Below are positions 36,323-60,925 of a DNA stretch of 64,000 nucleotides, piece by piece (position 1 is the first letter of the stretch; each line of letters begins with the position of its first letter). The translations under genes and the position numbers were made by a program. The stretch spans positions 186,862,179 through 186,926,178 of the forward strand of contig OX352772.1 in the NCBI GenBank assembly GCA_947095535.1. Reading direction: 5' to 3'. Below the pieces are notes generated by a model. The model did not search any database. It was not told where the DNA came from and was given only the letters and a program-made list of their open reading frames with translations. Source of the stretch: Poecilobothrus nobilitatus (Eukaryota; Arthropoda; Insecta; Diptera; Dolichopodidae).

Positions 36323-39300
36323 CTAGGAGTATGTTCCCTTGTAATAAAAAGTAGTTGAGACTAAATTGGATGGGATACGGACGGACAAAATGCGGATAAA
36401 GAATAATGAGACGGTAATTTGCGTCATAAATCTGTTAACATTCCTATTGAATTTGTCCAAATTGTAAATCAAAAAATCGTCAATTTTTGGAAACACAGAG
36501 GATGGTAATACGTTGCACATTTTTGCAGTTTTCACAACAAACAATTTGCTATAACCAGTAGAAAGATTAATTAGAAAGTTCCGCATAGTAGGTATGAGCA
36601 CTTGAGGTCCCTTTAGTGGTGTGGTGGAATGTTTTGAGAGGTGGCATCAGCGATTTTATCTCATCTGAACAAATGTTTCAACATTCCCCACAAAATATCT
36701 ATAAAAACGAGGAAGAATACAGTTGACTTTGTCAACTCTTAGATACCCGTACGAACCGTTAGTATGTTCACAGCCTGTCACTCTGCTTACAATATTATTT
36801 TTTTAACATTTTAGTATTTTAAAATAATTTGGGTAAATTTTATAATTTCTAGTACTATGGGTTGTACATATATTCAAACTATATGTTTATATGTACATTC
36901 TTCAAAAGCAGATTCTAATCTTCCACATAACGATTATCAATCCAAAACTTTTTCAAATATTCTATAGTACCATTTAATACTAAGCGGTAAATGTATATTA
37001 AATTTACTAAGTACAAAACAGTAAATGTAATTTTAAATATTATATTATATTATATTTAAATATTCCATTGATAGAATAATTTTTTATAAGTACAATAAAA
37101 TACATATATATGTATGTAAATACGGCACTATATAATATACATATATACTCTTATCATTCACCCACTAGTGGCATATACGATATGTAAATAAACATGATAT
37201 TATATAAGTATTTATATCAATATCATATAAATAAAAATTCTTCAAGCAACCGTTATGTTGTTTATTAATTTACATTTTTTTGTACTACGCATTATATCCT
37301 CAACAATTTCAAATTATCGAGTAAAACAAAATGGAAAAAATTCGTTAAAGCAATTTGTTAGAAAATTTGAAAAAATCAAGTAACACTTTCGTCAATTATA
37401 AAGTAACCCTATATTATTAAAAAAAGTTGTTAACAGAAATAAGAAAATAATGTTGAAGCTTTAATTTTTGTGTATTACTTCAAAAAAATTTTAACAGGTG
37501 TTCAAGTTACAGGTGTTTAAAAATAGGAAATTTTCAGTTTTTGACCCATTACAGCTCCTAAACGGGGGGTGACACAAAAAAAATTTCTGAAATGACTCAT
37601 ACTTATTTTCAAAGATCTAACATCTGTCGAAATTTCAAGTTTCCAACTTAAACCGTTTAGAAGATAGAAGGGTTAAAGGATTTTGCAAAATTTTAGTTTC
37701 GCATAACGGTAAATTAAGACAACGTATGCCACAACTATATATTTATTGTATATATACTTTTAAAGCTAATGGAAGTAGTAATCGTTTGACGTTTTCAAAA
37801 TGAAGATATACTTTATACAACTTGTGCTATAATAATTTAAATATAGAGCTTTTTTGAACCTTTGGGGAGCTGTAGCTCCGTAACGGGTGGGGCTACGAAA
37901 AAAAGTTATTAAAAATAAAATTAATATTTTTATGAGATCTATCAGCGGTTAAAATTTCATAGCTCTATTACAAAAAAAATGTGGGGATCTAAAAGTTAGG
38001 TGTTCGAGAGCTACCCTAAGGCTTGGTCCAAACTCAACCAAAAAAAATAGGGAACCTACAAATTACTACCAAAATATTTTGTGTAAATTTCAAGATTCTA
38101 GCTTTCTTAGTTTTTGAGTTAGCGTGCTGACGGACGGACGGACGGACATGGCTCAAAAGTCTTAGAATTTTTTTCTGATCCGATCCATACCTTTGAAGGT
38201 ATATCTAGCTCGCTTATTTCGAGGTGTTACAAACGGAGGAGTAATTTTATTATACCCGATCCTATCGTACGGGTATAAAGAGAAAGAGCTCTAATATTAC
38301 GACGAATGTGAAGCGAAGTGAGACAAGCAGTCTCAACGGAGTCTCTAATAAGACGAATGGCGCATTTTTGGTACACCATATATGGGAGCTATATTCCATC
38401 TTGGGTGTTATATAACCCTTATAGATATTTAGCCAGTCCCTGGATCAAAAATATGTCTTGCACCTAGAGAGAAAACTTAAGCATTTAGCAGCACTTTTCG
38501 CTATATCAAAAATTTGATCATTCCATATCATTTTATGATTTAGCTGTATGCCTAAAATACTTAGATTTTCTGATCGTTGTACAATTTCTTCCTGGAACCT
38601 CAGAGTAGGGTTAGTATTCGTTTTTTATTGAGATCTGACAACATCGAGTTTTGGTGGTGTTAAACTGCACTCTGTTGTTAGCACCCCAGCTAGCAATTAT
38701 GGCAAAATCAGGGTTAACCGTGTTGAATATAGTAAGCCGTGCTGCATTGATGGCGGTGTTTGTGACATCCTAGGAAACGCATAAAATTGCACCAGAGTGC
38801 TGTCGTTAGCGAAACTGTGGATTAGATTGAAGGTTGTAGATAAGAGATCGTTGAAAAAATCAAAAAGAGAGTTGGAGCAGGGACGGGTCGTTGCGGACGA
38901 AAGAAAATCTTCAACCTATTTACAGAAAGTAGTTCCAAGGCAGATAGCTTGACATTTGCTGAAACGAGCACCATGCCAAAGTCAATCAAAAGCTTTCGAA
39001 ATATCAAGAGCAACAACAGTTCATTCGCCAGAATAGTGAATGCTGCTGTTAAGTTTTCTACAAAGTTAAGTCAAAACATCGCCAGTGGATCGGTTACATA
39101 TTCTTAAACCATAGTGTCGATCATTTAAAATACCCTTATCATCGATATATTTCCAAAGCTTTTCGTTTATGATCGTTTCTATAACTTTGGAGATAATCGA
39201 AATTATAGCTAAATGCCTATAATTAGATGGGTGGCTTTTGTGACCTTTTTTGGGAATTGGTGAAACATGAGCAGTCTTCCATTAACAGGGATATATCCCA

Positions 39301-44918: not shown

Positions 44919-44924
44919 TAGGCG
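44919..44924. repeat. Target site duplication TAGGCG, left copy
   Basis: Identical to 55708-55713. A 6-bp duplication is the size made by Polinton/Maverick integrases. Confidence 0.95.
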
Positions 44925-45730
44925 AGTAGATAGGTAGGCACTTGGGCCAGACAGGTAGATCAGTAGATCAAGGTCACCCGGAAGTAGGTCAAGGTCACCC
45001 AGAAGTAGGTCAAGGTCACCCGGAAGGCCAGACAGGAAGTATGTCAAGGTCATTTTAAAAGTAAGTCAGACTGGCGGCGATCGTCAGTTGTTTATAAAGA
45101 TTGTATACTTGGTTTAAGTAATAGGTATGCAGGAAAATAGTAGGAAAAAAAAATGCTTTTTCATACAATGTAAAGAGAAAAAAACTGTACCTATACGTTT
45201 CTTTAAAATTTAAAAAAAAGTGCAAACTGGTTTTTTACATCTTAGATGAAGAATCAACAAAATTAATGCAATTTTGAGATGTATTTTTTTTTCTTTTTTT
45301 CTTGTTTTTTCTTTTTTTTATGAAGTATTTAAAGAAGAGGAAATAAAAACCATTAATTAATTGCGAGTATCACCGTATAAGATTTTATTGTTATGTAAGA
45401 ATGTTGACAAAAATATGAATAAAAAGAAAACAAACAGAAAATCAAAAATATCTAACATGTGGTTTAAGTAATAGGCGTAAATGCGTTTTTATAAAATGTA
45501 AAGAGAAAAATTTAAACAAATTAAGTGTACCTATGCGAATTTTTAAAATTAAAAGAAAAAAGTGCAAAGCTGGTTTTTAAATCTGAATCAACCTTGACCA
45601 AATTGATATTTTGAGGTGAATTTTTTCTTTTCTTTTTTGTTCTGATGAAATATTTAAAGAAGAGGAAAGAAAAAATTATTAGTATTTTAAGATTTTATTG
45701 ATATGTAAGAATGTAGAACAAAAAAGATGT
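44925..45730. repeat. Left terminal inverted repeat of the Polinton-like element
   Basis: The outer 130 bases contain three to four copies of a 21-bp unit close to GTAGGTCAAGGTCACCCGGAA. After a stretch TTTATAAAGATTGTATACTTG come two diverged subrepeats of about 260-350 bases (45112-45460, 45462-45725). Each contains TTTAAGTAATAGG, TGTAAAGAGAAA, GTGCAAA, a TTTAAAGAAGAGGAAA segment and TAAGATTTTATTG. All recur inverted at 54335-55707. Confidence 0.85.
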
Positions 45731-45838
45731 ATTCTTATGTTGTGTTAAAAAAAAAAAAAATAAAACAAATTTATTTATATGTTTGAAATAATTTTTTATT
45801 TAAAAATATTTAATAATTTTATAGAAATCTGTGCTGTT

Positions 45839-46408
45839 TTAATCTAACATTTTTTCTTTTAAAAGATACATATATACATTATAACAATTTTTAACAGCAC
45901 ATCTGAAATTGTTGTTTAATAAGTGTATAGGACAATTTGCTTTAAAGTTATCAATCTTTTGTAATGACGGCAAGTTTCTGCTTAAATCTTCTATTTTATC
46001 ACTGTCAATGTACTTTTGAAGGAATAGTTTTTTTTGTTCTCCTTTAACATAAATTTTTTCCGCTGACTCTAAATAGTGTTTTAATATGCATTTTACATCT
46101 AAATATTCAACTAGACCGTTATTCCATTTAAGTCCATTTATTTTATTTTCGCAATACTGGTTATTATATTTCATATCCGGACTAAGTTCCTCTGAGGGGT
46201 ACGGTGCTTTGAAGTGATAGACAGTTGGAATTAAACTTCCTTTTTCAAGTATGGCTAATTCTTTTAGGAAATATTGCTTTTCATGTCCTTGTAAAAATTG
46301 TAGGTCAACTATGAGAACTCGTTTAACCATGTCGACGGTTTGTGTAAGAATACTCATTAGAATAAATAAATTTACATTTATATTCACTTCGGCAAAAGAG
46401 CTTTTCAT
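45839..46408 (-). CDS. Polinton-associated protein, possibly a DnaQ/DEDD-like nuclease fold
   Basis: 189 codons from the ATG at 46408, intact; a second plausible start is the Met at 46327. It contains KRVLIVDLQFLQG, FLKELAIL, a HFKAPYPSEEL segment, GLKWNNGLVEYLDV, KIYVKGEQKKLFLQKYI and a C-terminal Cys/His pair (CPIHLL) followed by CAVKNCYNVYMYL. This order recalls uncharacterised insect transposon proteins in which an acidic residue after a first strand (VDLQ) and a second helix (KEL) suggest an exonuclease-like fold; I cannot confirm catalysis. It is the first gene inside the left repeat, divergent from the ATPase. The 50832-51164 product looks like a distant relative. Confidence 0.55.
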   Translation of the reverse strand: MKSSFAEVNINVNLFILMSILTQTVDMVKRVLIVDLQFLQGHEKQYFLKELAILEKGSLIPTVYHFKAPYPSEELSPDMKYNNQYCENKINGLKWNNGLVEYLDVKCILKHYLESAEKIYVKGEQKKLFLQKYIDSDKIEDLSRNLPSLQKIDNFKANCPIHLLNNNFRCAVKNCYNVYMYLLKEKMLD

Positions 46409-46449
46409 ATAAATATAGGTTAACAGTGCTATTTTTAACTAATACAACT

Positions 46450-47124
46450 ATGCTGTTTCATCCATTTACAATGATGGTAGCGGGGCCATCATGCTGTGGT
46501 AAAACCACTTTTATTCATAATTTAATAAAGTATAAAAAAGAAAATATACAACCACATATTAATAAAATTATTTGGTGTAATCCAGACAAAAATGCCGTTC
46601 CAAAATATTTAAAAGATGTGGAATATAGTAACACTATTCCGGATTTTAATGACAATAAAGAACCTTTGTTAATTATTATCGATGATATGATGTTAAATTC
46701 CCATGATAAGTATGTATGTGATTTATTTACTAGAGGATCACACCATAGAAATTTATCTGTAATATTTGTAACACAAAATGTTTTTCACCAGGGTAAATTT
46801 TCAAGAGATATTTCGCTTAATTGTAAATATCTAGTACTTTTCAAAAATCCAAGAGATAAATCGCAGATATTACCTCTAGCTCGCCAAATATATCCCAATC
46901 AAATCAAAGCATTTGAAAAAGTATACAATGAAGTGACGTCAGAACCATACGGGTATATATTAATAGATCTTACTCAAGACGTTAATGATATATTTCGATT
47001 AAGAAGTGATATATTTGGAAAAGGTTTGTGTTTTTGTACAAGAGATCAATTAGAACAATTTGGCAAAGAATATGAAACGTTTGAAGGTCAACCGTCATAT
47101 ATTGCACCTATTAAAAAGCTCTAA
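46450..47124 (+). CDS. Packaging ATPase (FtsK/HerA, A32-like)
   Basis: The ATG at 46450 gives 224 residues, MLFHPFTMMVAGPSCCGKTT at the start, with the Walker A motif GPSCCGKT at residues 12-19. Walker B is PLLIIIDDMM (about residue 70-80), followed by a sensor-like VIFVTQNVFHQG and FKNPRDKSQILPLARQ. Such ATPases pump genomic DNA into icosahedral capsids of Polintons, adenovirus-like and virophage-like viruses. The frame is intact and all motifs are present. An upstream in-frame GTG (46426) is unlikely as a eukaryotic start. Its 3' end overlaps the next gene. It is one of the few undamaged genes of the element. Confidence 0.93.
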   Translation: MLFHPFTMMVAGPSCCGKTTFIHNLIKYKKENIQPHINKIIWCNPDKNAVPKYLKDVEYSNTIPDFNDNKEPLLIIIDDMMLNSHDKYVCDLFTRGSHHRNLSVIFVTQNVFHQGKFSRDISLNCKYLVLFKNPRDKSQILPLARQIYPNQIKAFEKVYNEVTSEPYGYILIDLTQDVNDIFRLRSDIFGKGLCFCTRDQLEQFGKEYETFEGQPSYIAPIKKL

Positions 47125-47395
47125 ACCGAAATTTCAGAAAGTAATTATAAAACATTGTGACCCTGAAGTAATCAAAACATTTTGTGAATTTGCTTTGAAT
47201 ATTTTAAAAGGTAATTGTAATCTAAGTAAAAAATCAACAACCCAATTACGAAAGTATAAAAAGGAATTGAGATCCCTCATTTACCGCCAAAAATCTATAA
47301 ATAATAAAAGAAAAATCATTATTCAACGTGGTGGATTTTTACCTACACTTTTTGGTGCAGTACTATCAGGGATAATCGCAAATTTTATAAAATGA
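47072..47395 (+). CDS. Small basic Polinton protein with hydrophobic C-terminus
   Basis: From the ATG at 47072 the product has 107 residues. It is rich in Lys/Arg and ends IIIQRGGFLPTLFGAVLSGI plus a few residues, a glycine-containing hydrophobic segment able to enter membranes. The block NILKGNCNLSKKSTTQLRKY and the RGGFLP motif recur in small proteins found next to capsid genes of animal Polintons and adintoviruses. Function is unknown; a virion core or membrane-active role is a guess. It overlaps the ATPase end by 53 bases and the next gene by 4 bases (ATGA). Confidence 0.65.
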   Translation: MKRLKVNRHILHLLKSSKPKFQKVIIKHCDPEVIKTFCEFALNILKGNCNLSKKSTTQLRKYKKELRSLIYRQKSINNKRKIIIQRGGFLPTLFGAVLSGIIANFIK

Positions 47396-48078
47396 ATAAT
47401 ACAACATTTAACAAAATGATTATACTAAAACCCGAGATTTATGAGAAAATGAAACAAAATGCAGACTTTGAATTAAATGAGTTGGATAAAAATATGAAAA
47501 AAATATTGTTAAATAAATATCTAACAGACACTCAAAAATGGTATTTATACAGACAAAATTTATTTAAAATAAGAAACAAAAATAGAGTACTTCCTAGAAA
47601 TAAAGAGGAGAAAGTAAAAATTACGGAAACAAAAGGTACTCAAACTCGTGCAAAACCAATGTATATAGATGCGGAAGCTCAATCGCATTTTCCTGAATAT
47701 AAGAATGTAGGAATACAAGTTGTTCCTGAAGAAGAAGTATATGAAAAAGAAGCTGATGACGATGTATTTGATGATGAAATTCAGGAAAATGTTTTAACAA
47801 AAGCATTGTCAGCTGCTTCAGTTGGAGAACGCCTTAGAAAAAGAAAATCAATTAGAAATCAAAATGTACAAATTTTTGAAACTAATACAGGGGACATTAT
47901 AACTGTTCCTTTAGATAGCCCAAACCCACCAACGAAAAAAGAAAAAACTATAAATAGCAAAGAGTTGAATAATTCATCAAGACGTGTTTTAAGGTCAGCA
48001 GTAGGTAATACTCAAACAGAACTTAATTTTCCAATTCGTAAGAATAAATCCGCAAGCTCATGCACAACATACAAGTAA
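47392..48078 (+). CDS. Polinton accessory protein, charged and probably disordered
   Basis: 228 residues from ATG 47392, overlapping the previous stop as ATGA. The N-terminal third is helical (LKPEIYEKMKQNADFELNEL, LTDTQKWYLYRQNLFKI). The middle is acidic (EEEVYEKEADDDVFDDE) and the end is Ser/Lys/Arg-rich. Proteins with this layout, a helical head with a Kw.lY motif and a charged tail, sit between the ATPase and penton genes in animal Polintons. I do not know the function. The frame is intact and its last 19 bases overlap the penton-like gene. Confidence 0.6.
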   Translation: MNNTTFNKMIILKPEIYEKMKQNADFELNELDKNMKKILLNKYLTDTQKWYLYRQNLFKIRNKNRVLPRNKEEKVKITETKGTQTRAKPMYIDAEAQSHFPEYKNVGIQVVPEEEVYEKEADDDVFDDEIQENVLTKALSAASVGERLRKRKSIRNQNVQIFETNTGDIITVPLDSPNPPTKKEKTINSKELNNSSRRVLRSAVGNTQTELNFPIRKNKSASSCTTYK

Positions 48079-48869
48079 ATGATGAATTTTATGCCACTTT
48101 ACTCAGTGATTCATCTATGAACTATTATCCAGAAAATTCATTATCATCTTTTACAAATAAAATGAATAAATACATGTGTTATTCAAGGTGGAAAGTCGGT
48201 ATTTCAGAAATGTATGTTAATGATTTCGTTCCAAATGTGTATGGTGAAGAATGGGAAAAAAGTACTCAAATATTTATTAAAGGTATGCAGAAAGATATGA
48301 TAGGGGTTGGAACATCATATATTCCATACATAGAAAAACAAATGATATGCGACTGGAAAGTTTTTCTACTAACAACACTAATTCAAAATATACGCCCACT
48401 TAATAGGTTTACAAGAAAAGAAGTTGAACGACAGTTGATTTGGGGAATTTTTAATTTTATAAACGATGAAGTTCATTATACACAACCAATAAAAGCTGAG
48501 GAGATGCCTAAAAATTTAAGTTACACCACAATATGTGTTACTAAGCCTAAAATAGATATAAAAATAAGAGCAAATTACGCTTATACCCTCGAAGGACTTT
48601 TGACAACATGTTTCAATCAAGTATCTTTTAAAGTTACAGATTTTAAAAAATATAAATTACGTGTAATAGAAGCTTTCAAAACTTTTATAGATAGTGTACA
48701 ATTGATTCCCATTAGTAAACCAGATATGTTTTTTATATACACAGATATAATTGAACCGCAAAAACTAGGTGATAAAGATATAAGGTGTTTAAGATCTGTT
48801 AACATACAAAATTCTTTCACTGATACTGTAAAAGAATTCAGTAATATTCAATATTGCAATATCATTTAA
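48060..48869 (+). CDS. Minor capsid (penton-like) protein
   Basis: 269 residues from ATG 48060, intact. The N-terminus has FYATLLSDSSMNYYPENSLS followed by FTNKMNKYMCYSRWKVGISE. This FY-x-x-L-x-S-x-x-S-M-x-x-(Y/F)P-x-N...WxVGxxE pattern marks a widespread animal Polinton/adintovirus protein taken to be the single-jelly-roll penton that fills capsid vertices. Position just before the core-like and major capsid genes supports this. The C-terminal part (FFIYTDIIEPQKLGDKDIRC) keeps the family's YxDIIxPxxxGD-like motif. Assignment as penton is by family and context, not by visible fold. Confidence 0.75.
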   Translation: MHNIQVNDEFYATLLSDSSMNYYPENSLSSFTNKMNKYMCYSRWKVGISEMYVNDFVPNVYGEEWEKSTQIFIKGMQKDMIGVGTSYIPYIEKQMICDWKVFLLTTLIQNIRPLNRFTRKEVERQLIWGIFNFINDEVHYTQPIKAEEMPKNLSYTTICVTKPKIDIKIRANYAYTLEGLLTTCFNQVSFKVTDFKKYKLRVIEAFKTFIDSVQLIPISKPDMFFIYTDIIEPQKLGDKDIRCLRSVNIQNSFTDTVKEFSNIQYCNII

Positions 48870-49050
48870 GAAATATCATTAATATCATTTAAGAAATCAT
48901 TTAATAACATTTCATTACTTTTATGTGATAAATATGGATACAAAATAAACTTTTCCAATAGTTCAATTCCAACAAAAATTGTATTACATTTTAAAAAAGT
49001 ATAAATAAAAGCGATTTTACAAAACTATATATTATTTTATTTTATTCATT

Positions 49051-49491
49051 ATGGAGAGAGCGTACTACAAATATTATTTAGTTCAATCAGGAAAAGGTCT
49101 TGAGGATATTGGTCCTTTGTTACACTCAATTGTACCTTACCAAAGGGGACGAGGGTTAGGGAGCTTTTTCGGTAGTCTTTTTAGATATTTAAAACCAATA
49201 TTTACGTCTGGAGCTAATATATTTAAAAAAGAGGTTATTAACTCTGGTATTAATGCATTATCTGATATTGCTACAGGTGCAAATGTAAAAGAAGTGGTTC
49301 AAGATCGAAGTAAAGAGATAATGAAAAATGTAAGACGAGGTGCAGTTCGGAAACTCAATGAAATGTATGGACAAGGCAAAAGAAAACGAAGAAAATCTAT
49401 AAAAAGACCTCTCATTAATAATTTAAATTATTTTACGTCGAAGCGACGCAAAGTTAATAACAAAAACAAAGAAAAAGATATTTTTGAATAA
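49051..49491 (+). CDS. Adenovirus core/pVI-like minor virion protein
   Basis: 146 residues from ATG 49051, intact. The N-terminus has YYKYYLVQSGKG and the centre QRGRGLGSFFGSLFRYLKPI, an amphipathic Gly/Phe-rich segment. After this come KKEVINSGINALSDIATGAN and a strongly basic tail (GQGKRKRRKSIKRP, SKRRKVNNKNK) suited to DNA binding. Similar proteins precede the major capsid gene in Polintons and adintoviruses and are compared with adenovirus core proteins. Its stop is 2 bases before the start of the major capsid gene. Confidence 0.7.
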   Translation: MERAYYKYYLVQSGKGLEDIGPLLHSIVPYQRGRGLGSFFGSLFRYLKPIFTSGANIFKKEVINSGINALSDIATGANVKEVVQDRSKEIMKNVRRGAVRKLNEMYGQGKRKRRKSIKRPLINNLNYFTSKRRKVNNKNKEKDIFE

Positions 49492-49493
49492 TT

Positions 49494-50794
49494 ATGATTG
49501 AATGTATGAAATCAGAGCTTGATATTTTTAAAACACAGCCTATTCAGTCAAGTATTTTACGATCAAGTATTTTACGATTTTACGATCTATTGCTTCTTTA
49601 GATAATCCGTCTGTCATAGAATTTGTTTCACTAGGGCACGGTGATACATATAGAGACTTGTCTTCGACATATCTAAAATTAAAAGTACAAATTTTAAAAA
49701 AAGATGGAACTCAATGAAATAAAGATAAAAAAACTGATGGAACACCTATACAACAACCAAGTGTGGTTAATAATATGTTACATTCATTAATAAAACAATG
49801 TAATGTTCAACTAAATGGAAAGAATATATCTTCATCAGATGGCAATTATCATTACAGATCTTATATTGAATCATTGTTAAATTATGGTACGGATGCCGCT
49901 ACAACGCATTTGGAGTGTGGTGGATGGATGCTAGATAAGCCAAATATAGCAAAAACAGATAGTGGTTCAAAAGAACGTCAAAAATTATACCAAAATAGCA
50001 ATGTAGTGGAACTTATGGGGAAATTACATTTAGATATGTTTAACCAACCTACACTTCTCATAAACAATGTCGATGTTCGAGTTGTCCTAACATTAGAAAA
50101 ACCAGATTTTTACCTCTTTGCAGATGATACTGATGAATCTCAACTGAAAATTTTAGAAGCCACTTTATTTATGAGACATGTAACAATTAATCCTAGTGTG
50201 CTATTAGCACATAATGCTGTATTGGAAAAAACTAATGCCAAATACAATTACAAACGGGTAGAGGTAAAAACTTTTACCATTCCACAGAATAGTTCATCAA
50301 TATCACTTGATAATGTTTTTATTGGACAGTTGCCGAACACAATCATTTTTTGCATGACAGAAAATACAGGTTACTCTGGAAAAAGGTCAAAAAACCCATA
50401 CAATTTTAAACATTTTGATATTTCACAATTTGTGTTAAACGTAAATGGTGTTCAAATACCTAATTCAGCAATTGAAACCAGTTTTTCAGATGAAAATAAT
50501 TGCTGTACAAGAGCATACAGTACACTTTTTTCGGGAACTGGAATTTACCATAATGATAAAGGTCATCAGATAACAAAAACCATGTTTAGTAATGGGTTTT
50601 TCATTCTAGCTTTTGATTTAACTCCAGATTCATCAGGAAATGAAGTGTGTCAAGGTCTACTAAATCAAGGTACAGTTAGAATTGAGGCAAGACTATCAAA
50701 ACCACTTACATCTACACTGACTGCTATTGTTTATGGAGAATTTGATGCAAGTTTACAAATTGATAAAAACCGAAATATATTCTCAAACCTATAA
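49494..50794 (+). pseudogene. Major capsid protein (hexon-like double jelly-roll), broken near the N-terminus
   Basis: The gene starts at ATG 49494. A local duplication (TCAAGTATTTTACGA repeated at about 49548-49577) shifts the frame and leads to TAG at 49599-49601; the correct frame then meets TGA at 49715-49717. From 49718 the frame is open to 50794. It shows LLHSLIK-like MLHSLIKQCNVQLNGK, YRSYIESLLNYG, GKLHLDMFNQPTLLIN, LFMRHVTINPSVLLAHNAVL and NPYNFKHFDI, all typical of Polinton/adintovirus major capsid proteins. The full family length is about 430-650 residues. The first ATG after the lesions is 49775, which would remove an essential strand region, so function is unlikely. Confidence 0.88.
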
Positions 50795-50831
50795 ATAGCA
50801 TATATAAAAGTAAATTTGATTATTTGACAAA

Positions 50832-51164
50832 ATGTCACTGTCTTGTGCACTTCTGGATGTAACATTTTGTAGTGATGATAATAATACCTTGTTTGCGAAA
50901 GATATTTGTATAGTTGGTTTTAAAGAACCTTGTAAAAAGTTTGTAAAAGAGCTCAAGTATAAATTTCCAACTAGGGATTTTATAAATGATAATTTTGATA
51001 ATTACTCTTTTGGAACTGTGTACAACGATAAAATAAATAAAGAGCTCTGTCAAATACTAGAAAAATTTGATGTTATTATAACAAATAAAAAAATAAAAAA
51101 AGAGTTTTTATCTAATTATATTAAAGAAACAACTAAAGTATATGACTTGAATCAATTTGATTGA
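50832..51164 (+). CDS. Unknown Polinton protein, possibly a short DnaQ-like relative
   Basis: 110 residues from ATG 50832, between the capsid and protease genes, sharing one base with the protease start (TGATG). It reads LLDVTFCSDDNNTLFAKDIC, then FGTVYNDKINKELCQIL and KFDVIITNKKIKKEFLSNYI. The spacing of D-x-T, K-D, then a Val-Ile-Ile strand followed by a K-x-x-FL-x-x-YI helix resembles the minus-strand gene at 45839-46408. It lacks the C-terminal CPIHLL/CAVKN part. The relation is tentative. Confidence 0.45.
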   Translation: MSLSCALLDVTFCSDDNNTLFAKDICIVGFKEPCKKFVKELKYKFPTRDFINDNFDNYSFGTVYNDKINKELCQILEKFDVIITNKKIKKEFLSNYIKETTKVYDLNQFD

Positions 51165-51637
51165 TGAATACCCTAGAGATAAGTGACGTATTAAGATGTA
51201 ACAAACACACACGTACATTTTTTAAAGGAGTTTTTGCTCTGGATCAACTCCCCAGAATAATTGAAAAACAAACTTTTTTAATTGTAAACACTGATAAATC
51301 AAATTGGTTAGCTATTTTTAAGCCAAAGAATGGCTGTGTTGAATATTTTGATTCGTTTGGTAGAAAACCAGATAAATTATAAATTTTAAGTTACTTAAAA
51401 AATCAATGTATAATTTTTAATAAGAAACAGTTACAAAGTAACTATTCAGATGTTTGTGGGCAATATTGTTGTGTTTATACATGGTATAGATGTTGCGGTT
51501 ATAGTATGAACGCTTTTTTAAAAAAATTGAATAAAGGAAATCAACTAGAAAACGATAAGTATATTTTAAGTACCTTTCAAAATGTATTTGGAAAATATAA
51601 CTCATTACAAATTTGTGTTCCTAAAACGTATAAATAA
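51164..51637 (+). pseudogene. Adenain-like cysteine protease, interrupted by a stop and lacking its catalytic His
   Basis: Open from ATG 51164 for 72 codons to a TAA (51380-51382); the same frame then runs on to 51635-51637, 157 codons in all. The first part has FFKGVFALDQLP, SNWLAIFKP and YFDSFGR; the second has SDVCGQYCCVYTWY. The family needs His in the H-W motif, Asp in FDxFG and Cys in CGxYC. Here the His position is Asn (SNW), so the enzyme would be dead even without the stop. Adenain-type proteases mature capsid precursors. Order after the capsid gene fits Polintons. Confidence 0.88.
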
Positions 51638-51675
51638 TAAAAACAATATAAACAGGTTTTAGTAAAATTAAAGGA

Positions 51676-52098
51676 ATGGAAGCACCAAGTCAGAACACAA
51701 ATTTATTGCTAAGTTACACATATTTTCTCAATAAGAGTCATACATTAAAAAATTGCTGTTGGATTTGACTGTGAATCATTTGAAGCCTCAAGTATAATTC
51801 ACCGTATTGGTAAAAAGTCAATTGTCTTAAAATATCATGAAGGGAATAAATTTTATTACGAATTTAACAAAAAACTCGATAAAAAAATATAAAACAGAAC
51901 TTTCATCATGGACTAAAATCAGCGAACAGGCAAAGTATAAGTATTAACAAAGAAGAAGCAGAGCAGTTTTACAATTTAAGCGATTTTCTTCACGCAGTGA
52001 TGATCTATTATAAATCTGCTGAGTTAAATGTAAAAGACTATGTTCGGGAATATCTAAATTTATGTGTCGAACAACAAGTTTTTAGGTTAGAAAGATAA
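51676..52098 (+). pseudogene. Unknown Polinton gene remnant
   Basis: Three consecutive coding-like pieces in shifted frames. These are an N-terminal one from ATG 51676 to TGA near 51766 (MEAPSQNTNLLLSYTYFLNK), a middle one (SIIHRIGKKSIVLKYHEGNK, to TAA near 51890) and a last one (INKEEAEQFYNLSDFLHAVM, YVREYLNLCVEQQVFRL, to TAA 52096-52098). The middle piece could be a strand-rich nucleic-acid-binding domain of the PC4 type, and the last part is helical. I do not recognise the family. At least two lesions are present. Confidence 0.45.
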
Positions 52099-52367
52099 AT
52101 TTATGTACCAATACAACGTTTTAATGTACACTGTAATTATTCAAGGTTATTTTTTGAAATTTCTGTAATTTTAAAGGAACAAATCTGTAATATACTACAT
52201 AAAACAAACAAAATAAATCACAATAAATAATATAAAAATTTTTATTTTTTATTTATATGTTCTAGATAGACAAATATTTTTCTGTACACCTTTCATTAGA
52301 TTATTTAATTAAAATTATTTAGGATTATTAAATCATTGAAATAATCAAGATCTCTTATGTCCCAAAT

Positions 52368-52589
52368 TTAATTAAATAGAACTGCTTCCTCATCTTCCTC
52401 AATTTCTTCTTCCACTGCTTCTTCTTCGTCTTCTAATTCAACTATCTGGAACGGGGGTGTAAATTCCTCAGTTTCTGCTAAATCTTCGTCGTCCATGGTG
52501 GACGTAATTTCATTTTCTTGTATCTGACCTTGTGTATTTACATCATCTACAGTTTCTTTAAATGGAAATGATGTGGAATCAGGCAGCAT
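52368..52589 (-). CDS. Small acidic protein of unknown function
   Basis: 73 residues from ATG 52589 on the minus strand. The C-terminal half is almost all Glu/Asp (ELEDEEEAVEEEIEEDEE). It sits between the unknown remnant and the integrase, opposite to both. No domain is visible. It could be a regulatory or histone-mimic-like protein, or the end of a longer gene whose 5' part decayed. It may also be only a low-complexity open frame. Confidence 0.35.
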   Translation of the reverse strand: MLPDSTSFPFKETVDDVNTQGQIQENEITSTMDDEDLAETEEFTPPFQIVELEDEEEAVEEEIEEDEEAVLFN

Positions 52590-52779
52590 TTCAGCGAGTT
52601 GTTGAGCAGTCAGAATGGAAATGAATTAAATTTGAAAATAAAAGTTGAGTTATATACTCATGTAGAAAAGTATAAAAGCAAATTAAACTCAATTAGATGA
52701 TTAGTTTAAACCATGCTTTGGTCTATCATTTTATGTATAATAATTATTATAACATTACCTTTAACATTTTTAAAACAAA

Positions 52780-53699
52780 ATGTCAAGAGCTCAAATAGTG
52801 ACTGAAATTCATAGACAGGCAAGACGTAAATTTCTTAGAAGAAAATTCAAACAGAAAGGTCTAATGACACGTGGCAAATCGATTTAGTCGAAATGATACC
52901 TTATGGAAAATTTAATAATGGTTATAAATATATGCTGACGGTAATTGATACTTTTTCCAAATATGCCTATGCTGAACCTGTGAAAACAAAAAATGCTGAA
53001 AATATTTTAAATGCCTTAAAAACAATTATTGTTAGAGCTAAAGTTATACCAAAAAATATTCATTCTGATCAAGGCAAGGAATTTTTTAATTTACAATTTC
53101 AAAATTATATGAAAGAAAAATCAATCAATCATTATCACACATTTAGCGAATTAAAAGCATCAATTGTTGAACGGTTTAACCGTACATTGAAAAATTCTAT
53201 GTGGAAAAAATTTAGTTTAAACGGGAATTATAAATGGTTACCTATTATACAATCATTAATAAAAGAATATAATTCAACAAAACATAGCACAACAAAACTT
53301 CCTCCTGAAAAAATTACAAAGAAAAACGAAAAAAATATACTGCGGAATGTATATACTGAGCCTAAAATTTTTCAAAAAAGTAAATATAAAACTGGAAATT
53401 TTGTAAGAATAAGTAAATATAAAGGTCATTTCGAAAAAGGTTATCAACCGAATTGGTCAACTGAAGTATTTAAGATTGATAAAATCAATAATACTTATCC
53501 TGTTACATATCAATTATCGGACTATACTGATACGCCAATTTCTGGGCGTTTTTATCAAGCTGAGCTTACAACTGTAAAATACCCAGATACTTGTCTTGTA
53601 GAAAAAATTCTGAAAAAGCAAGGAAATAGAGTTTTTGTTAAATGTCTAGGTTTTGATGACACACATAATACTTGGATAAATTCAACAAATATTGTTTAA
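52780..53699 (+). pseudogene. Polinton integrase (DDE, rve family) with chromodomain, one frameshift
   Basis: The probable start is ATG 52780 (MSRAQIVTEIHRQARRKFLR). A one-base lesion near 52855-52863 shifts the frame; the rest is open to 53699. The core shows WQIDLVEM (first Asp, just before the Met at 52893), a VIDTFSKYAYAEPVKTK block, IHSDQGKEFF (second Asp) and KASIVERFNRTLKN (Glu, 33 residues between Asp and Glu as usual for Polintons). The end has a chromodomain-like segment, LVEKILKKQGNRVFVKCLGF followed by NTWI. Integrases of this type insert the element with 6-bp duplications, as seen here. The frameshift lies before the catalytic domain. Confidence 0.9.
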
Positions 53700-53876
53700 T
53701 ATCTGTAAAATAAAACTCTAATAAGCACCTGAAAATAAAACTTGAAAACATCTGAAAAATGAAATAAAATCTTAACATCTGAAAAATGAAAATAAAATTA
53801 AAACAGTAGAAAATTTCTTTGAAATAAAATTTTTTTTATTAAATAAAATTTTTTAAATAAAATTAGTCTAAAACTA

Positions 53877-54119
53877 TTACTGATTTGTGGCGAATTCAAA
53901 ATCACCACGTTCTTCTTTTAAATTTAATTGGCTTTCCTCAATTATGAGGAAATATTCATTTTTTTCGATTTCCTCACGGAAATCATTATCTTCAAATACC
54001 CCAACTTTTTGATGCGGTATAAATATAATATTATTTAGGGTCTCGAAGACCCATTTTTTACCGTAAACGGTTTTTAACTTTTTAATCTTATTTATTTTAT
54101 AGAGCCTACTTGGCTCCAT
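53877..54119 (-). CDS. Small OB-fold-like protein, possibly single-stranded DNA binding
   Basis: 80 residues from ATG 54119. It reads LYKINKIKKLKTVYGKKWVF, then NNIIFIPHQKVGVFEDNDF and YFLIIEESQL. The pattern (Y-x-I-x-x-x-K-x-x-x-T-x-YG-x-x-x-x, then I-x-F-x-P, then D-x-x) recalls short insect transposon proteins with one OB-like barrel, thought to bind single-stranded DNA. Upstream the same frame stays open without an ATG through RKRKLAELFNLKKNFKKFLK into a Gln-rich repeat, so the original protein may have been longer. It is the innermost gene at the right repeat, convergent with the integrase. Confidence 0.4.
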   Translation of the reverse strand: MEPSRLYKINKIKKLKTVYGKKWVFETLNNIIFIPHQKVGVFEDNDFREEIEKNEYFLIIEESQLNLKEERGDFEFATNQ

Positions 54120-54221
54120 ATCTTTAACTTTTAAAAATTTTTTAAAATTTTTTTTTAAATTAAATAATTCCGCCAGTTTTCTTTTTCTGATGGGATTTGA
54201 TGTTGCCTTACTCTGATAATC

Positions 54222-54335
54222 TTGTTGTTGCTGTAGTTGCTGTTGTTGTAGTTACTGTTGCTGCAGTTGTTGCTGTTGTTGTGGTTGTTGATGTTGTTAT
54301 TGATGATGATGCAGTTGATGTAGTTGCTGTTGTTT
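54222..54335. repeat. GTT/GCT-rich microsatellite (Gln-coding on the minus strand)
   Basis: Imperfect GTTGTTGCT-type triplets. On the minus strand most triplets are CAA/CAG. The tract lies directly upstream of the OB-like gene frame and inside the right inverted repeat boundary. Confidence 0.8.
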
Positions 54336-55707
54336 TTTTTTCAACATTCTTACATAACAATAAAATCTTATACGGTGATACTAAGATTTTTTTCTTTCCT
54401 CTTCTTTAAATACTTCATAGAAAAAACGATAACAAGAAGAAATAAAAGCATCTCAAAATTGCATCAATTTTGTCAAGGTTGAATCTTTATGTAACATTTA
54501 AAAACCAGTTTGCACTTTTTCTTTTAATTTTTTTAAAATTAGTTTTAAAATTTTAAAGAAACGTAGTTACACATCTTTTTGTTCCGTTTTCATTTTTCTC
54601 TTTAAATTTTATAAAGCATTTTTTTGTTATTCTTTTCATATATGCCTATTACTTAAGCTAGGTATACATCAACAAGAAGTATACCTGTACCACGTTAGAT
54701 ATTTTTGATTTCTTGTTGTTTTCTTTTTATTCATATTTTTTTCTTGAACACAGAATAAATCTGTTTTATTTTTATATTCTTGTTTTCAAAATAGGTGACA
54801 AATGCAATTAACCTGACTTGAATTTTTTTCTTTTTTTATTTTTCACAGATTAGGCCACATACAATGCACTTAAGCAATATGTTAGTCGTTAAGTACTTCC
54901 ATAGCTTTAATTTCCTGGTTGTCTTCTTTTCATTCATATTTTTTGTGAACATTCTTACAAACAAAAAATATCTTACATGACACACCGACAATAATCATTA
55001 GTTTTTTTCTTTTAACTTCTTTAAATAGTTAAAGTAGAAAAAAAAAAACAACACAAATAATTAGGTACATCTAAAAACGCTAAATTTTTGTTCAATGGTT
55101 TGATCATTATGTAGACATAAAAACAGGTTTGCACTTTTTCTTTATGAATTTTAAAGATGCGTTGTACCTTTTTAAATTGTTCTATCTTGTACGTTTAAAC
55201 TTTTTTTTGTTTTTTTCCTTTTACATTCATTAACCATTTTTTTGTTTCTACTTTTCATATGCGCCTATTACTTATAACTTAAGCCAAGTATACATCAATA
55301 AGAAGTAGACCTGTACCACGTTAGATATTTTTGATTTCTTGTTTTTTTTCAACATTCTTACATAACAATTAATTAATGGTTTTTCTTTCCTCTTCTTTAA
55401 ATACTTCATAAAACAAAACGAAAGAAAAAAACAACAAACAACAACATCTTAAAATTTGCAAGCATAAAAAAAAAATTTGTTCTTACTATTTCCATGTTTA
55501 CCTATTACTTAAAACAAGTATACAATCCTTATAAACAACAAGAGTTGTCTGACGGTCGCCGCCGCCTGTCTGACCTAATTTTATGTCGTTAACCTACTCC
55601 TGTCTGACCTAATTACAGTTTGACCTACTTCCGGGTGACCTTGACCTACTTACGGGTGACCTTGACCTACTGACCTGTCTGGCCCAAGTGCCTACCTATC
55701 TACTACT
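54335..55707. repeat. Right terminal inverted repeat of the Polinton-like element
   Basis: About four diverged subrepeats (54335-54665, 54665-54910, 54910-55290, 55290-55520). Each shows AACATTCTTACATAACAAT or a variant, a TTCTTTAAATACTTCATA segment, TTTGCACTTTTTC and GCCTATTACTTA. The last 190 bases hold the 21-bp minisatellite (TTCCGGGTGACCTTGACCTAC). They mirror 44925-45730 but with more subrepeats, so the two ends differ in length by about 560 bases. Confidence 0.85.
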
Positions 55708-55713
55708 TAGGCG
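55708..55713. repeat. Target site duplication TAGGCG, right copy
   Basis: Identical to 44919-44924. Confidence 0.95.
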
Positions 55714-58236: not shown

Positions 58237-60925
58237 TATACGCTACACCTAAAGTATAGGGTATATTAACTTTGGTATGGTGTTTGTAACCACCAAAAGG
58301 AAGCGAGTTAGATATGGACATGTATATATACTATTCTGAATCAGATCCACCTCCTGAGTCGATTTAACGATGTCCGTCCGTCCGACCTGGATTCTGGAAG
58401 CTTCCGAATGATACCGGAGCAAACGAAATTATCTCCAAAACCAACAAAGATAGAACCTTTAAATTTTGTACAATGATGTTCCTTCCCGTTCGATTTATGT
58501 CTTTGAAATTAAAGAGGATTTGGTTCATGGGTTTGGATTTTGGAAGCTTCCGAACAAGCACCTGAGCAAATGAGATTATCTCCAAAACCAACTAAGATAT
58601 AACCTTTAAATTTAGCAGAGTGCTGTTCTTTCATGTTTTATTTAAGTCTCTGAAAATTGAGAGGATTTGGTCCATCGGTTCGGATTTTGGAGGCTTCCAA
58701 ACAAGACCCAGAGCAAACGAGATTATCTCCAAAACCAACAAAGATAGGACCTTTAAATTTTGTACAATGATGTTCTTCCCCGTTTGATTTAAGTCTCTGA
58801 AACTTAAAAGGAGTTGGTCCATGGGTTTGGATTTTGGAAGCTCCCGAACGAGCACCAGAGCAGATAAGATTATCTCCATTTCTTTCATGTTTTATTTAAG
58901 TCTCTAAAATTTGAAAGGATTTGGTCTATTGGTTCGGATTTAAGATGCTTTCGAACGAGCCCCAGAGCAAATGAGATTATCTACAAAATCAACAAAGATA
59001 GAACCTTTAAATTATGTACAATATTGTTCCTTCCCGTTCGATTTATGTCTCTGAAATTTAAGAGGATTTCCGAATGAGCCCCAGAGCAAAGGAGATTATC
59101 TCCAAAACCAACAAAGATAGAACCTTTAAATTTTTTACAATGATGTTCCTTCCCGTTTGATTTATTTCTCTGGAATTTAAGAGGATATGGTCAATGGGTT
59201 TGGATATTGGAAGCTTCCGAACGAGCCCCAGAGCAAATGAGATTATCTCCAAAAAAAAGAAAAATTTAACCTTTAAAATTGGCAGAATGGTGTTCTTTAA
59301 TGTTTGATTTAGGTCTCTGAAATTTGAGAGGATTTGGTACATGGTTTCGGATTTTGGAAGCTTCCGAACGAGTCCAAGAGCAAACGAAATTATCTTCAAA
59401 ACCAACAAAGATAGAACCTTTAAATTTTGTACAATGATGTTCCTTCCCGTTCGATTTATGTCTTTGAAATTAAAGAGGATTTGGTTCATGGGTTTGGATT
59501 TTGGAAGCTTCCGAACAAGCACCTGAGCAAATGAGACTATCTCCAAAACCAACTAACCTTTAAATTTGGCCGAGTTATGTTCTTTCATGTTTTATTTAAG
59601 TCTCTGAAATTTGAGAGGATTTGGTTCATGGGTTCAAATCTTGGAAGCTTTCGGACGAGCCCCATAGCAAACGTGTATATCTCCACAACCAACATTGATA
59701 GAACTTTTATTTTTAGTACAAAGAAGTTCTGTTATGTTTCCTTTTCTATAAAATTGGAAACTGACATTTGAAAGAATTTGAACCATGAATTCGTATTTTG
59801 GAAGCTTCCGAACGAGCCCCAGAGCAAACGAGATTATCTCCATAATCAACAAAGATGGACTTTAAATTTTGTACAATAATGTTCCTTTCCGTTCGATTTA
59901 TGTCTCTAAAATTTAAGAGGATTTGGTCCATGGGTTTGGATTTTGGAAGCTTCCGAACGAGCACCAGAGCAAATGAGATTATCTCCAAAACCAACAAAGA
60001 TAGAACCTTTAATTTTTGTACAATGATGTTCCTTCCCGTTTGATTTATGTCTCTGGAATTTAAGAGGATATGGTCAATGGGTTTGGATTTTGGAAGCTTC
60101 CGAACGAGCCCCAGAGCAAATGAGATTATCTCCAAAAACAAGAAAAATATAACCTTTAATATTGGCAGAATGGTGTTCTTTAATGTTTGATTTAGGTCTC
60201 TGAAATTTGAGAGGATTTGGTCCATGGTTTCGGATTTTGGAAGCTTCCGAACGAGCCCAAGAGCAAACGAGATTATCTCCATAATCAACACTGATAGAAA
60301 CTTTAAATTTTGTACAATGATGTTCCTTCCCGTTCGAGTTATGTCCCTAAAATTTAAGAGGATTTGGTCCATGGGTTTGGATTATGAAAGCTTCCGAACA
60401 AGCACCTGAGCAAATGAGATTATCTCCAAAACCAACTAAAATATAACCTTTAAATTTGGCCGAGTTATGTTCTTTCATGTTTTATTTAAGTCTCTGAAAT
60501 TTGAGAGTTTTTGGTTCATCTTGGAAGCTTTCGGACGAGCCCCATAGCAAACGAGTATATCTCCACAACCAACAAAGATAGAACTTTTATTTTTAGTACA
60601 ATGGTGTTCTGGCATGTTTTCTTTATGTTCCTGAGATGGTTTCGATGAATTGGAGTGGCAATTTGGGTACCTGACACACACCTCCCTAGGACTAACAGTC
60701 TTCGAAATTAATAAAGATAGAAACTTAAAATTTTTTACAAAGTCGTCAAGCATATCCCAAGATGATGCCCCTTTTGCGTTCCTGAAATTCGAGTTGAATA
60801 AGATAGAAAAGGGAAGAAGTTCAAGCAGCTGCCAAAAAAACTTATGAATTTTTTATTTAATTCGAATTATTCAGGTGTAGGGTATTAATAAGTCGGTTGC
60901 ATCGACTTACTGTTACATTTACTTG
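58237..60925 (+). mobile_element. Helentron-like family B copy 2, expanded
   Basis: Starts TATACGCTACACCTAAAG, has TATGGACATGTATATA and a (GTCC)n stretch near 58371-58384, and ends with GGTGTAGGGTATTAATAAG and CATCGACTTACTGTTACATT, the hairpin end of family B. The centre is a long tandem array (listed next). At 2.69 kb it is more than twice the size of copy 1. TTATTAT occurs at both borders. No protein is encoded. Confidence 0.7.
58380..60640. repeat. Array of about sixteen 146-bp units
   Basis: The marker TATCTCCAAAACCAACAAAG (with variants) occurs about every 144-150 bases, at roughly 58430, 58576, 58724, 58868, 58976, 59096, 59246, 59390, 59536, 59678, 59834, 59979, 60127, 60271, 60419 and 60556. 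A few spacings are shorter (108-120), marking internal deletions. Neighbouring units at 58430-58620 and 59390-59570 are almost identical, as are 59096-59390 and 59979-60240, showing higher-order duplication. Long open frames on the minus strand are by-products of the repeat. Confidence 0.9.

What the first reader, a model, noticed from the sequence alone, without database searches (positions are those of the whole stretch)
44925..55707. A complete-looking 10.8-kb Polinton-like element with no DNA polymerase B
Both ends, the 6-bp duplication (TAGGCG at both borders) and the virion genes (ATPase, penton-like, hexon-like, protease, core-like, integrase) are present. Yet no frame resembles the large protein-primed polymerase that defines animal Polintons and adintoviruses. 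The gene spacing is tight and leaves no obvious scar. Either this is a deletion derivative mobilised by a full-length relative, or a lineage that replicates with other enzymes. The DnaQ-like and OB-like genes at its two ends would then be candidates for replication roles.
Basis: partly seen in the sequence, partly recalled or inferred. Interest (0 to 1): 0.88.

Follow-up and report, generated by a model that had tools for sequence, protein, structure and literature searches.

The report
Polinton family without its polymerase gene
An insect genome carries a virus-like mobile element that has lost its own DNA-copying enzyme and yet sits at many places, apparently by borrowing that enzyme from close relatives in the same genome, much as a satellite virus uses a helper.

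Summary
Window 44925-55707 is a 10.8-kb Polinton with inverted repeats, a 6-bp target duplication, virion and integrase genes, and no PolB. It is damaged: capsid and protease frames carry stops.

The host genome (944 Mb) explains it. A 15.2-kb family "A" shares the left end and virion genes (about 99% over 48174-51524) and has PolB; 32 of 33 sampled A stretches hold an exact PolB marker. The window copy is not A minus PolB but a mosaic: at about 51,524 it switches to a second PolB-bearing family, "B2", and at about 53,390 to an integrase-tail/OB-like module that abuts right-end repeats where A has PolB.

The mosaic is a family: 30 of 40 scored loci match a query spanning both junctions, 35 of 40 match OB-like gene plus right repeats, 17 are in both sets. 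The integrase shows purifying selection against B2 and A. PolB-bearing families abound. Most likely it is a satellite replicated in trans; that step is inferred. The DnaQ-like and OB-like genes also occur in PolB-bearing families, so they are not replacements.

The parts
44919..44924 (.). left copy of the 6-bp target-site duplication TAGGCG
   Evidence: matching copy at 55708-55713
44925..45150 (+). left terminal inverted repeat, tip AGTAGATAGG
45151..45725 (.). left subterminal AT-rich repeats, related to 54333-55456
45839..46408 (-). gene 1, 189 aa, possible RNase H-like/DnaQ-like fold (D-L-Q where DEDD exonucleases have D-x-E, motif recalled); its DNA is present at the left end of A copies, and family D has a homologue (50% identity over 161 columns)
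46366..47124 (+). genome-packaging ATPase, A32/FtsK-like
47054..47395 (+). small ORF, function unknown
   Evidence: no Pfam match over cut-off
47392..48078 (+). ORF, function unknown
48060..48869 (+).
49051..49491 (+). core-like ORF; 36% identical over 146 columns to the N-terminal part of a Leptosia nina protein that continues as the capsid protein
49532..50794 (+). major capsid (hexon, F54H12.2-like) gene, interrupted by an in-frame stop at 49715-49717 and not matching its relatives at the start
50832..51164 (+). 110-aa ORF; homologue in family D (48% identity over 108 columns)
51161..51637 (+). adenain-like cysteine protease gene, interrupted by an in-frame stop; contains the first recombination junction (about 51524)
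51524..53390 (.). segment shared with PolB-bearing family B2 (mismatch about 2%); about 30% different from family A in the part aligned (51524-52173)
51883..52098 (+). protein X (partial frame), 54% identical over 70 aa to the X protein of family A
52368..52625 (-). acidic ORF, open in 12 of 13 copies compared
52893..53699 (+). rve integrase, weak C-terminal chromo match below cut-off; contains the second junction (53318-53390)
53877..54251 (-). OB-like small protein, 47% identical over 94 columns to its counterpart in family A; fold not established (mean pLDDT 54)
54334..55418 (.). right subterminal repeats, 90-97% identical to blocks of the right end of PolB-bearing family A, where PolB follows
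55476..55707 (-). right terminal inverted repeat, tip AGTAGTAGATAGG (one AGT more than the left tip)
55708..55713 (.). right copy of the target-site duplication TAGGCG

Best explanation
The element is one copy of a polymerase-less ('satellite') Polinton family. Recombination between co-resident Polinton families joined the virion half of an A-type element to the middle of a B2-type element and to a right end in which an integrase-tail/OB-like module abuts the right-end repeats, so that PolB was left out. The product keeps terminal repeats, packaging ATPase, capsid genes and its own integrase. It most likely multiplies because PolB made by related full-length elements in the same nucleus recognises the related ends and copies it by protein priming; its own or a helper's integrase inserts the product with a 6-bp duplication, and virion proteins may package it. 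Shown: absence of PolB in the window copy, ends, target duplications, mosaic junctions, copy number, co-resident PolB-bearing families, selection on the integrase between families. Inferred: copying in trans, protein priming, packaging.
For: No PolB in the window copy. 30 of 40 scored loci match the 3.5-kb query that spans both junctions; 35 of 40 match OB-like gene plus right repeats uninterrupted and the other 5 also run from it into the repeats; 17 loci are full in both lists (coordinates compared by hand). The left part is also free of PolB where checked, 4 loci: the window, the 139.4-Mb copy (extra length accounted for by two insertions, in part identified as a repeat found elsewhere in the window), and two by distance between landmarks (8,315 against 8,325 bases; 8,039 against 8,102). 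Independent insertion: TSD TAGGCG (window) and CATACA (139.4 Mb). Possible helpers: family A, left end 97-98% over 200 bases, right end 80-97%, B2 and D with open PolB frames. Selection on the integrase: dN/dS 0.18-0.23 against B2, 0.15 against A. In two mosaic copies the two tips differ by one AGT unit, as sliding-back initiation by a protein-primed polymerase would give (recalled mechanism).
Against: No expression, replication or packaging data exist here. The window copy is damaged, and frameshifts or stops occur in several sibling copies, so part of the family is dead. The left side was checked at only 4 loci, and beyond 54,760 the right side of siblings was read at few loci (whole at 139.4 Mb; two others are cut). 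Within the family, differences are few: integrase 5-15 per pair (dN/dS 0.27-0.44), OB-like gene 2-5 per pair, mostly non-synonymous (0-1 synonymous), so no selection is shown there. The outermost right repeat of the window is only 80% identical to A's, so recognition by A's PolB is not assured. In one search the window's virion half matched other loci best, 13 of the 36 already classed as A and none a mosaic locus; part of the likeness to A may be later gene conversion.
Confidence: 0.68

Rival explanations
1. A one-off deletion derivative of a full-length Polinton, now a dead fossil.
For: Longer PolB-bearing copies with the same left end exist; capsid and protease carry stops.
Against: 30 of 40 scored loci match across both junctions and two copies have different target duplications. 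The right module is not A minus a piece (integrase 58.6% protein identity).
Confidence: 0.08
2. A lineage that replicates with its own non-PolB enzymes, with the DnaQ-like and OB-like proteins as parts of the machinery.
For: Gene 1 weakly resembles DnaQ-type exonucleases (best E 3.5e-3, none at 0.001 or below, TM about 0.4); the OB-like protein has a strand pattern compatible with an OB fold at low confidence.
Against: Relatives of both genes occur in PolB-bearing families. In the ORFs scanned no helicase, primase or other polymerase reached a cut-off; the only such matches (RNA_helicase E 0.001, Rad17, AAA families, PHROGs clamp loader E 0.13) are weak P-loop matches of the packaging ATPase. 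Gene 1 has D-L-Q in place of the expected D-x-E (motif recalled), which suggests weak or no exonuclease activity.
Confidence: 0.08
3. Cut-and-paste or host-polymerase amplification: the integrase moves the element as DNA and host repair or chromosomal replication multiplies it, without PolB.
For: The integrase is conserved between families. Neighbouring copies on C8 (138.556, 138.560 and 138.77 Mb) suggest some local duplication.
Against: AGT-unit variation at the tips and ends related to those of PolB-bearing families point to the same replication mode; the sample of tips is small.
Confidence: 0.11
4. The copies are mainly later products of gene conversion between resident Polintons rather than of transposition of the mosaic itself.
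For: Mosaic structure is seen more than once in these families; the window's virion half is nearer to A loci than to sibling mosaics.
Against: A 3.5-kb segment with both junctions recurs at 30 of 40 scored loci on several contigs at 93-98% identity; separate conversions would not be expected to repeat both breakpoints.
Confidence: 0.05

Closest known systems
Animal Polinton/Maverick elements and adintoviruses (F54H12.2-like hexon)
   Same: 6-bp target duplication, long inverted repeats, rve integrase, A32/FtsK-like ATPase, hexon family, cysteine protease.
   Different: No PolB, the gene that together with hexon defines adintoviruses in PMC11071296 (passages seen).
Polinton-like viruses without PolB (PLVs, mostly protists)
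   Same: Capsid-coding integrating element without PolB. [quoted passage not shown]
   Different: PLVs mostly encode other replication proteins in its place (PMC11071308, passages seen); none was found here, the rve integrase is kept, and the hexon is of the animal Polinton kind.
Chimeric meldviruses with adenovirus-class virion genes and no recognisable PolB or integrase (PMC11071296, passages seen)
   Same: Animal-type virion genes joined to a different replication module, PolB missing.
   Different: Those lack the integrase too, and the example named there carries a primase-helicase; here the integrase is kept, no replicase is found, and PolB-bearing sister families share the host genome.
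Virophages and other satellite viruses
   Same: Would work like them: own virion genes, dependence on another element's replication (inferred).
   Different: Most virophages carry their own polymerase or primase (recalled); the presumed helper here is a resident sister transposon, not a giant virus.

Membership tests
Polinton/Maverick (adintovirus) | terminal inverted repeats with a 6-bp target-site duplication | tested here: met
   second mosaic copy CATACA at both ends
Polinton/Maverick (adintovirus) | retroviral-type (rve) integrase | tested here: met
   rve E 1.1e-13, over cut-off
Polinton/Maverick (adintovirus) | C-terminal chromodomain of the integrase | tested here: inconclusive
   Chromo E 0.034, below cut-off
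Polinton/Maverick (adintovirus) | packaging ATPase of the A32/FtsK kind | tested here: met
   Pox_A32 28.3 bits, cut-off 22.8
Polinton/Maverick (adintovirus) | hexon of the family | tested here: met
   715 homologues, named ones F54H12.2-like; by sequence only; that this name marks the Polinton hexon is recalled; no solved structure matched
Polinton/Maverick (adintovirus) | adenain-type cysteine protease | tested here: met
   window piece 45% identical to a family D protein that matches ASFV S273R E 2.2e-6; the window frame is broken
Polinton/Maverick (adintovirus) | penton | tested here: inconclusive
   ORF 48060-48869 has no match over cut-off
[quoted passage not shown]
   window copy; siblings, from 50,800 to 54,760 only
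PolB-less Polinton-like virus | alternative replicase such as SF1/SF3 helicase, primase or PolA | tested here: not met
   none over cut-off in the ORFs scanned with Pfam and none of that kind beyond weak P-loop matches with PHROGs; very divergent ones could be missed
Satellite virus / virophage-like dependence | needs a helper's replication proteins | not testable with these tools
   possible helpers are present in the genome; dependence is inferred

The most novel reading that the evidence does not exclude
A stable lineage of satellite Polintons in an insect: capsid- and integrase-coding, polymerase-less elements born by module shuffling among resident Polintons, which live on the PolB of sister families with related ends, a helper-satellite pair made entirely of resident transposon-viruses.
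Probability: 0.45. Interest if true: 0.8.

Novelty: new variant of a known kind. Interest (0 to 1): 0.62.

Why it matters
Polintons are called self-synthesising because they carry PolB. A family that keeps capsid and integrase genes but multiplies without PolB, beside near-identical PolB-bearing relatives, would show that these elements can split into helpers and satellites in one animal nucleus, and that recombination inside conserved genes shuffles virion and replication modules. It gives a natural system in which to ask whether Polinton PolB works in trans and whether such satellites interfere with their helpers, as virophages do.

Tried and rejected
Rejected: that PolB is present but diverged (negative; control limited to the two of four pieces that overlap the control locus); that the copy is an assembly accident (the same joint segment at 30 of 40 scored loci); that it is a simple internal deletion of A (integrase 58.6% protein identity to A's). 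Two IMG/VR scans found no relative of the capsid, so no free virus was found there. A homologue search of the OB-like protein found nothing, of gene 1 only two proteins. The OB-like model is too poor to use. The capsid alignment matched no solved structure (best E 0.82). Five literature searches did not list a report of a polymerase-less Polinton family beside its PolB-bearing relatives in an animal genome (listings of 12-20 papers each; passages seen of PMC11071308, PMC11071296, PMC4028283, PMC6431247 and PMC10120064). Only openly licensed papers are in that library, and the two founding papers that I asked for (Polintons 2006, adintoviruses 2021) are not held.

Limits: the genome search scores only the best 37-75 candidates, so all copy numbers are lower bounds and the matches closest to the window are over-represented; the left part of sibling mosaics was checked at 4 loci only. 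Of the 40 integrase matches, 33 were examined: 19 with the OB-like flank, 9 with a PolB-type flank (one of them over 105 of 301 bases only), 2 with right-end repeats directly, 3 unresolved, 7 not examined.
Full report
What was given. The finding describes a complete-looking 10.8-kb Polinton-like element at 44925-55707 with no DNA polymerase B and offers two readings: a deletion derivative mobilised by a full-length relative, or a lineage with other replication enzymes.

Is it there? Yes. The tips are at 44925 and 55707, with TAGGCG on both sides. The arms share a perfect 32-nt match near the tips and further blocks. The two tips are AGTAGATAGG and, read inwards from the right, AGTAGTAGATAGG: the same sequence apart from one AGT unit. 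The ATPase and integrase are clear by Pfam. The capsid piece matches 715 proteins; the nearest named ones are 'F54H12.2-like' proteins of the long-legged fly Condylostylus longicornis (up to 83% identity), and an unnamed contig reaches 93%. That the host is a fly of that group is an inference from these matches. The protease piece is 45% identical to a protein of another family of the same genome that matches ASFV S273R. The core-like ORF is 36% identical to the N-terminal part of a Leptosia nina protein that continues as the capsid protein. The penton-like label has no match over cut-off.

No PolB. Four PolB pieces from related elements of the same genome, each searched apart, gave no match below E 1 in the 64-kb window; the two pieces that overlap the control locus matched it (one a self-match); the PolB motifs tried were absent in six frames. 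The copy is damaged: an in-frame stop splits the capsid gene, its start does not match its relatives (by eye), and the protease is split by a stop. In the protease segment the other copies compared lack a 15-base deletion of the window copy, but several have breaks of their own.

The genome around it. The assembly has 943.8 Mb in 84 contigs, and the window lies on C1. A 200-base query from the left end gave 40 scored matches (1,225 first-look candidates), 97-98% identical apart from the window itself. Two of them, 15.2 kb apart in opposite orientation, bound one longer copy. In its middle (L009) the window's 48174-51524 is matched with 0.9% mismatches; beyond that the copy carries, on the opposite strand, an OB-like gene, an integrase and the C-terminal part of PolB (Pfam DNA_pol_B_2 E 6.6e-10). 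Its right end (L048) holds long frames that continue PolB and, outside them, right-end repeats. I call this family A.

How many A copies? Of the 39 other left-end matches, two are the two ends of that one copy, so there are 38 elements or fragments. For 33 of them a fetched stretch was classed as A, and an exact 34-base PolB marker was present in 32 of the 33 (the marker was chosen from this same set for being conserved, so it is a presence test and not an independent estimate). One (139.4 Mb) is the same mosaic as the window, one (L031) is a short copy with PolB sequence, for one (L045) the PolB side was not covered, and two (L029, L030) were uninformative.

The window copy is a mosaic. Against family A the mismatch rate jumps from 0.9% to 30% at about 51,524, inside the protease gene (0 of 1,000 shuffles of the mismatch positions reach this). 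From there to about 53,390 the window is about 98% identical to a second set of copies, B2 (L061, L063, L064), and at 53,318-53,390, inside the integrase gene, this falls to about 79% (0 of 1,000 for each of the three; profile). In L061-L063 the integrase is followed by DNA that is about 70% identical to the PolB region of A copies, on the opposite strand; the motif Y-x-D-T-D-S was read in L062 and L063. So B2 is a PolB-bearing relative; L064 looks like a B2 copy with a deletion. In the window the integrase is followed instead by the OB-like gene and then by right-end repeats whose blocks are 90-97% identical to those of A. In A, PolB lies just inside those repeats. The element has therefore most likely lost PolB by recombination inside conserved genes, which would also explain why no scar is visible.

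It is a family. A 3.5-kb query that spans both junctions (50800-54320) is matched essentially whole at 30 of 40 scored loci, at 93-98% identity apart from the window itself; one of the 30 reaches 3431 of 3521 and continues in a second piece (5,558 first-look candidates). A query of the OB-like gene plus the first right-end repeats (53720-54760) is matched whole, to within three bases at either end, at 35 of 40 scored loci; the other five are cut but also run from the OB-like gene into the repeats. Comparing the two lists by coordinates, 17 loci are full in both, so at those 17 there is no PolB from the 110-aa gene through protease, X, integrase and OB-like gene into the right-end repeats. Beyond 54,760 the right side was read whole only in the window and the 139.4-Mb copy; two others are cut. 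The left part was checked at four loci: the window; the 139.4-Mb copy, about 14.0 kb long, where one insertion of 1,577 bases (part of it matching a repeat present elsewhere in the window) and a second that begins with the same repeat and was only partly fetched account for the extra length; and two copies in which the distance between left-end and integrase landmarks is 8,315 and 8,039 against 8,325 and 8,102 in the window (distances worked out by hand from the coordinates). The 139.4-Mb copy has its own target duplication, CATACA.

A count in the other direction: of the 40 scored matches to 52250-53250 I looked at the flank of 33. Nineteen have the OB-like flank, nine the PolB-type flank, two run straight into right-end repeats, three are unresolved; seven were not examined.

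Selection. Comparing the window's integrase with B2 copies gives dN/dS 0.18 and 0.23, and with A 0.15; the OB-like gene against A gives 0.26. Within the mosaic family there are too few differences to say more: integrase 5-15 per pair (ratios 0.27-0.44), OB-like gene 2-5 per pair with 0-1 synonymous. The integrase frame is open in 8 of the 12 copies compared over their whole length, window included; L059, L061 and L064 have frame-shifting indels and L062 a stop; a thirteenth copy was covered only in part. The OB-like frame is open in 8 of 8.

Helpers. The PolB profile gives 221 matches from 75 scored stretches (5,851 first-look candidates), many in open frames of 1,277-1,331 codons. One of these, at C1:188.473 Mb, belongs to yet another family, D: its PolB piece is 59% identical to A's over 326 columns, and a few kb further lie a gene-1 homologue (50% identity), an X homologue, a protease and a homologue of the 110-aa gene. 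So PolB-bearing relatives with open frames coexist with the mosaic family.

How it most likely works. Shown: a left end shared with PolB-bearing A copies and a related right end, no PolB, many loci, own insertion sites, selection on the integrase between families. Inferred: PolB from A or another family copies the mosaic in trans by protein priming. A hint is the AGT unit: in the window and in the 139.4-Mb copy one end has an extra AGT and the other does not; the left tip of the 229.75-Mb mosaic has it too; in the short A copy at 124.5 Mb both ends have the shorter form. Variation in a terminal 3-nt unit is what sliding-back initiation of protein-primed polymerases would leave (recalled). This is a small sample.

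The two candidate replication genes. The OB-like protein gave a poor model and no homologues. Gene-1 DNA is present at the left end of A copies and D has a homologue; A has an OB-like counterpart. They look like general Polinton accessories and not a substitute for PolB.

A result that complicates the picture. With the virion half of the window (47400-51400) as query, the 37 scored loci are the window and 36 others, whose pieces match at 95-98% (one short piece at 100%); by coordinates 13 of the 36 lie in copies already classed as A and none is a mosaic locus. The virion half of the window copy is thus closer to A than to its own siblings, as if it had been exchanged again, or converted, after the mosaic arose.

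Comparison with what is known. By virion genes, integrase and ends this is an animal Polinton (adintovirus-like). It fails one defining feature, PolB. PolB-less Polinton-like viruses are known, mostly in protists, and mostly carry other replication genes (PMC11071308 and PMC10120064, passages seen); chimeric animal contigs without recognisable PolB and integrase are on record (PMC11071296, passages seen). The searches did not list a polymerase-less family with virion genes and integrase beside its PolB-bearing relatives in an animal genome; the library holds only openly licensed papers. I therefore rate it a new variant of a known kind.

Noticed in passing
window 18125-43383: A 25-kb near-perfect palindrome (25,280 aligned columns, 99.5% identical to its own reverse complement), holding retroelement gag/pol frames in mirror image. 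It could be a real inverted duplication or an assembly fold-back.
   Followed up: partly
window 58388-60637: A long tandem array with many shifted self-matches at about 73-85% identity.
   Followed up: no
G000 C1:188470300-188478500 (L070-L072): Another Polinton family, D, with long open PolB frames and a different gene order (PolB and gene-1 homologue on one strand, X, protease and 110-aa gene on the other).
   Followed up: partly
L047 (G000 C2:112139800-112145800): Beside an A copy lies a stretch with integrase-like DNA (67% to the window) and, by eye, fragments that look like PolB: perhaps an older Polinton.
   Followed up: no
L050 176-1752 (139.4-Mb copy); window 37371-38276 and 23228-24137: A repeat has inserted in the 139.4-Mb mosaic copy at the capsid start, a second insertion there begins with the same repeat, and it also borders the cut right end of the 229.75-Mb copy. 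The window copy has an indel near the same spot.
   Followed up: partly
L052, L053 (G000 C1:124508796-124518566): A short A copy with PolB sequence, about 9.8 kb, with AAATTG at both ends.
   Followed up: no
G000 C8:138555715-138563721 and 138772429-138776413: Several mosaic copies lie close together, two of them only 4 kb apart, which suggests local duplication as well as insertion.
   Followed up: no
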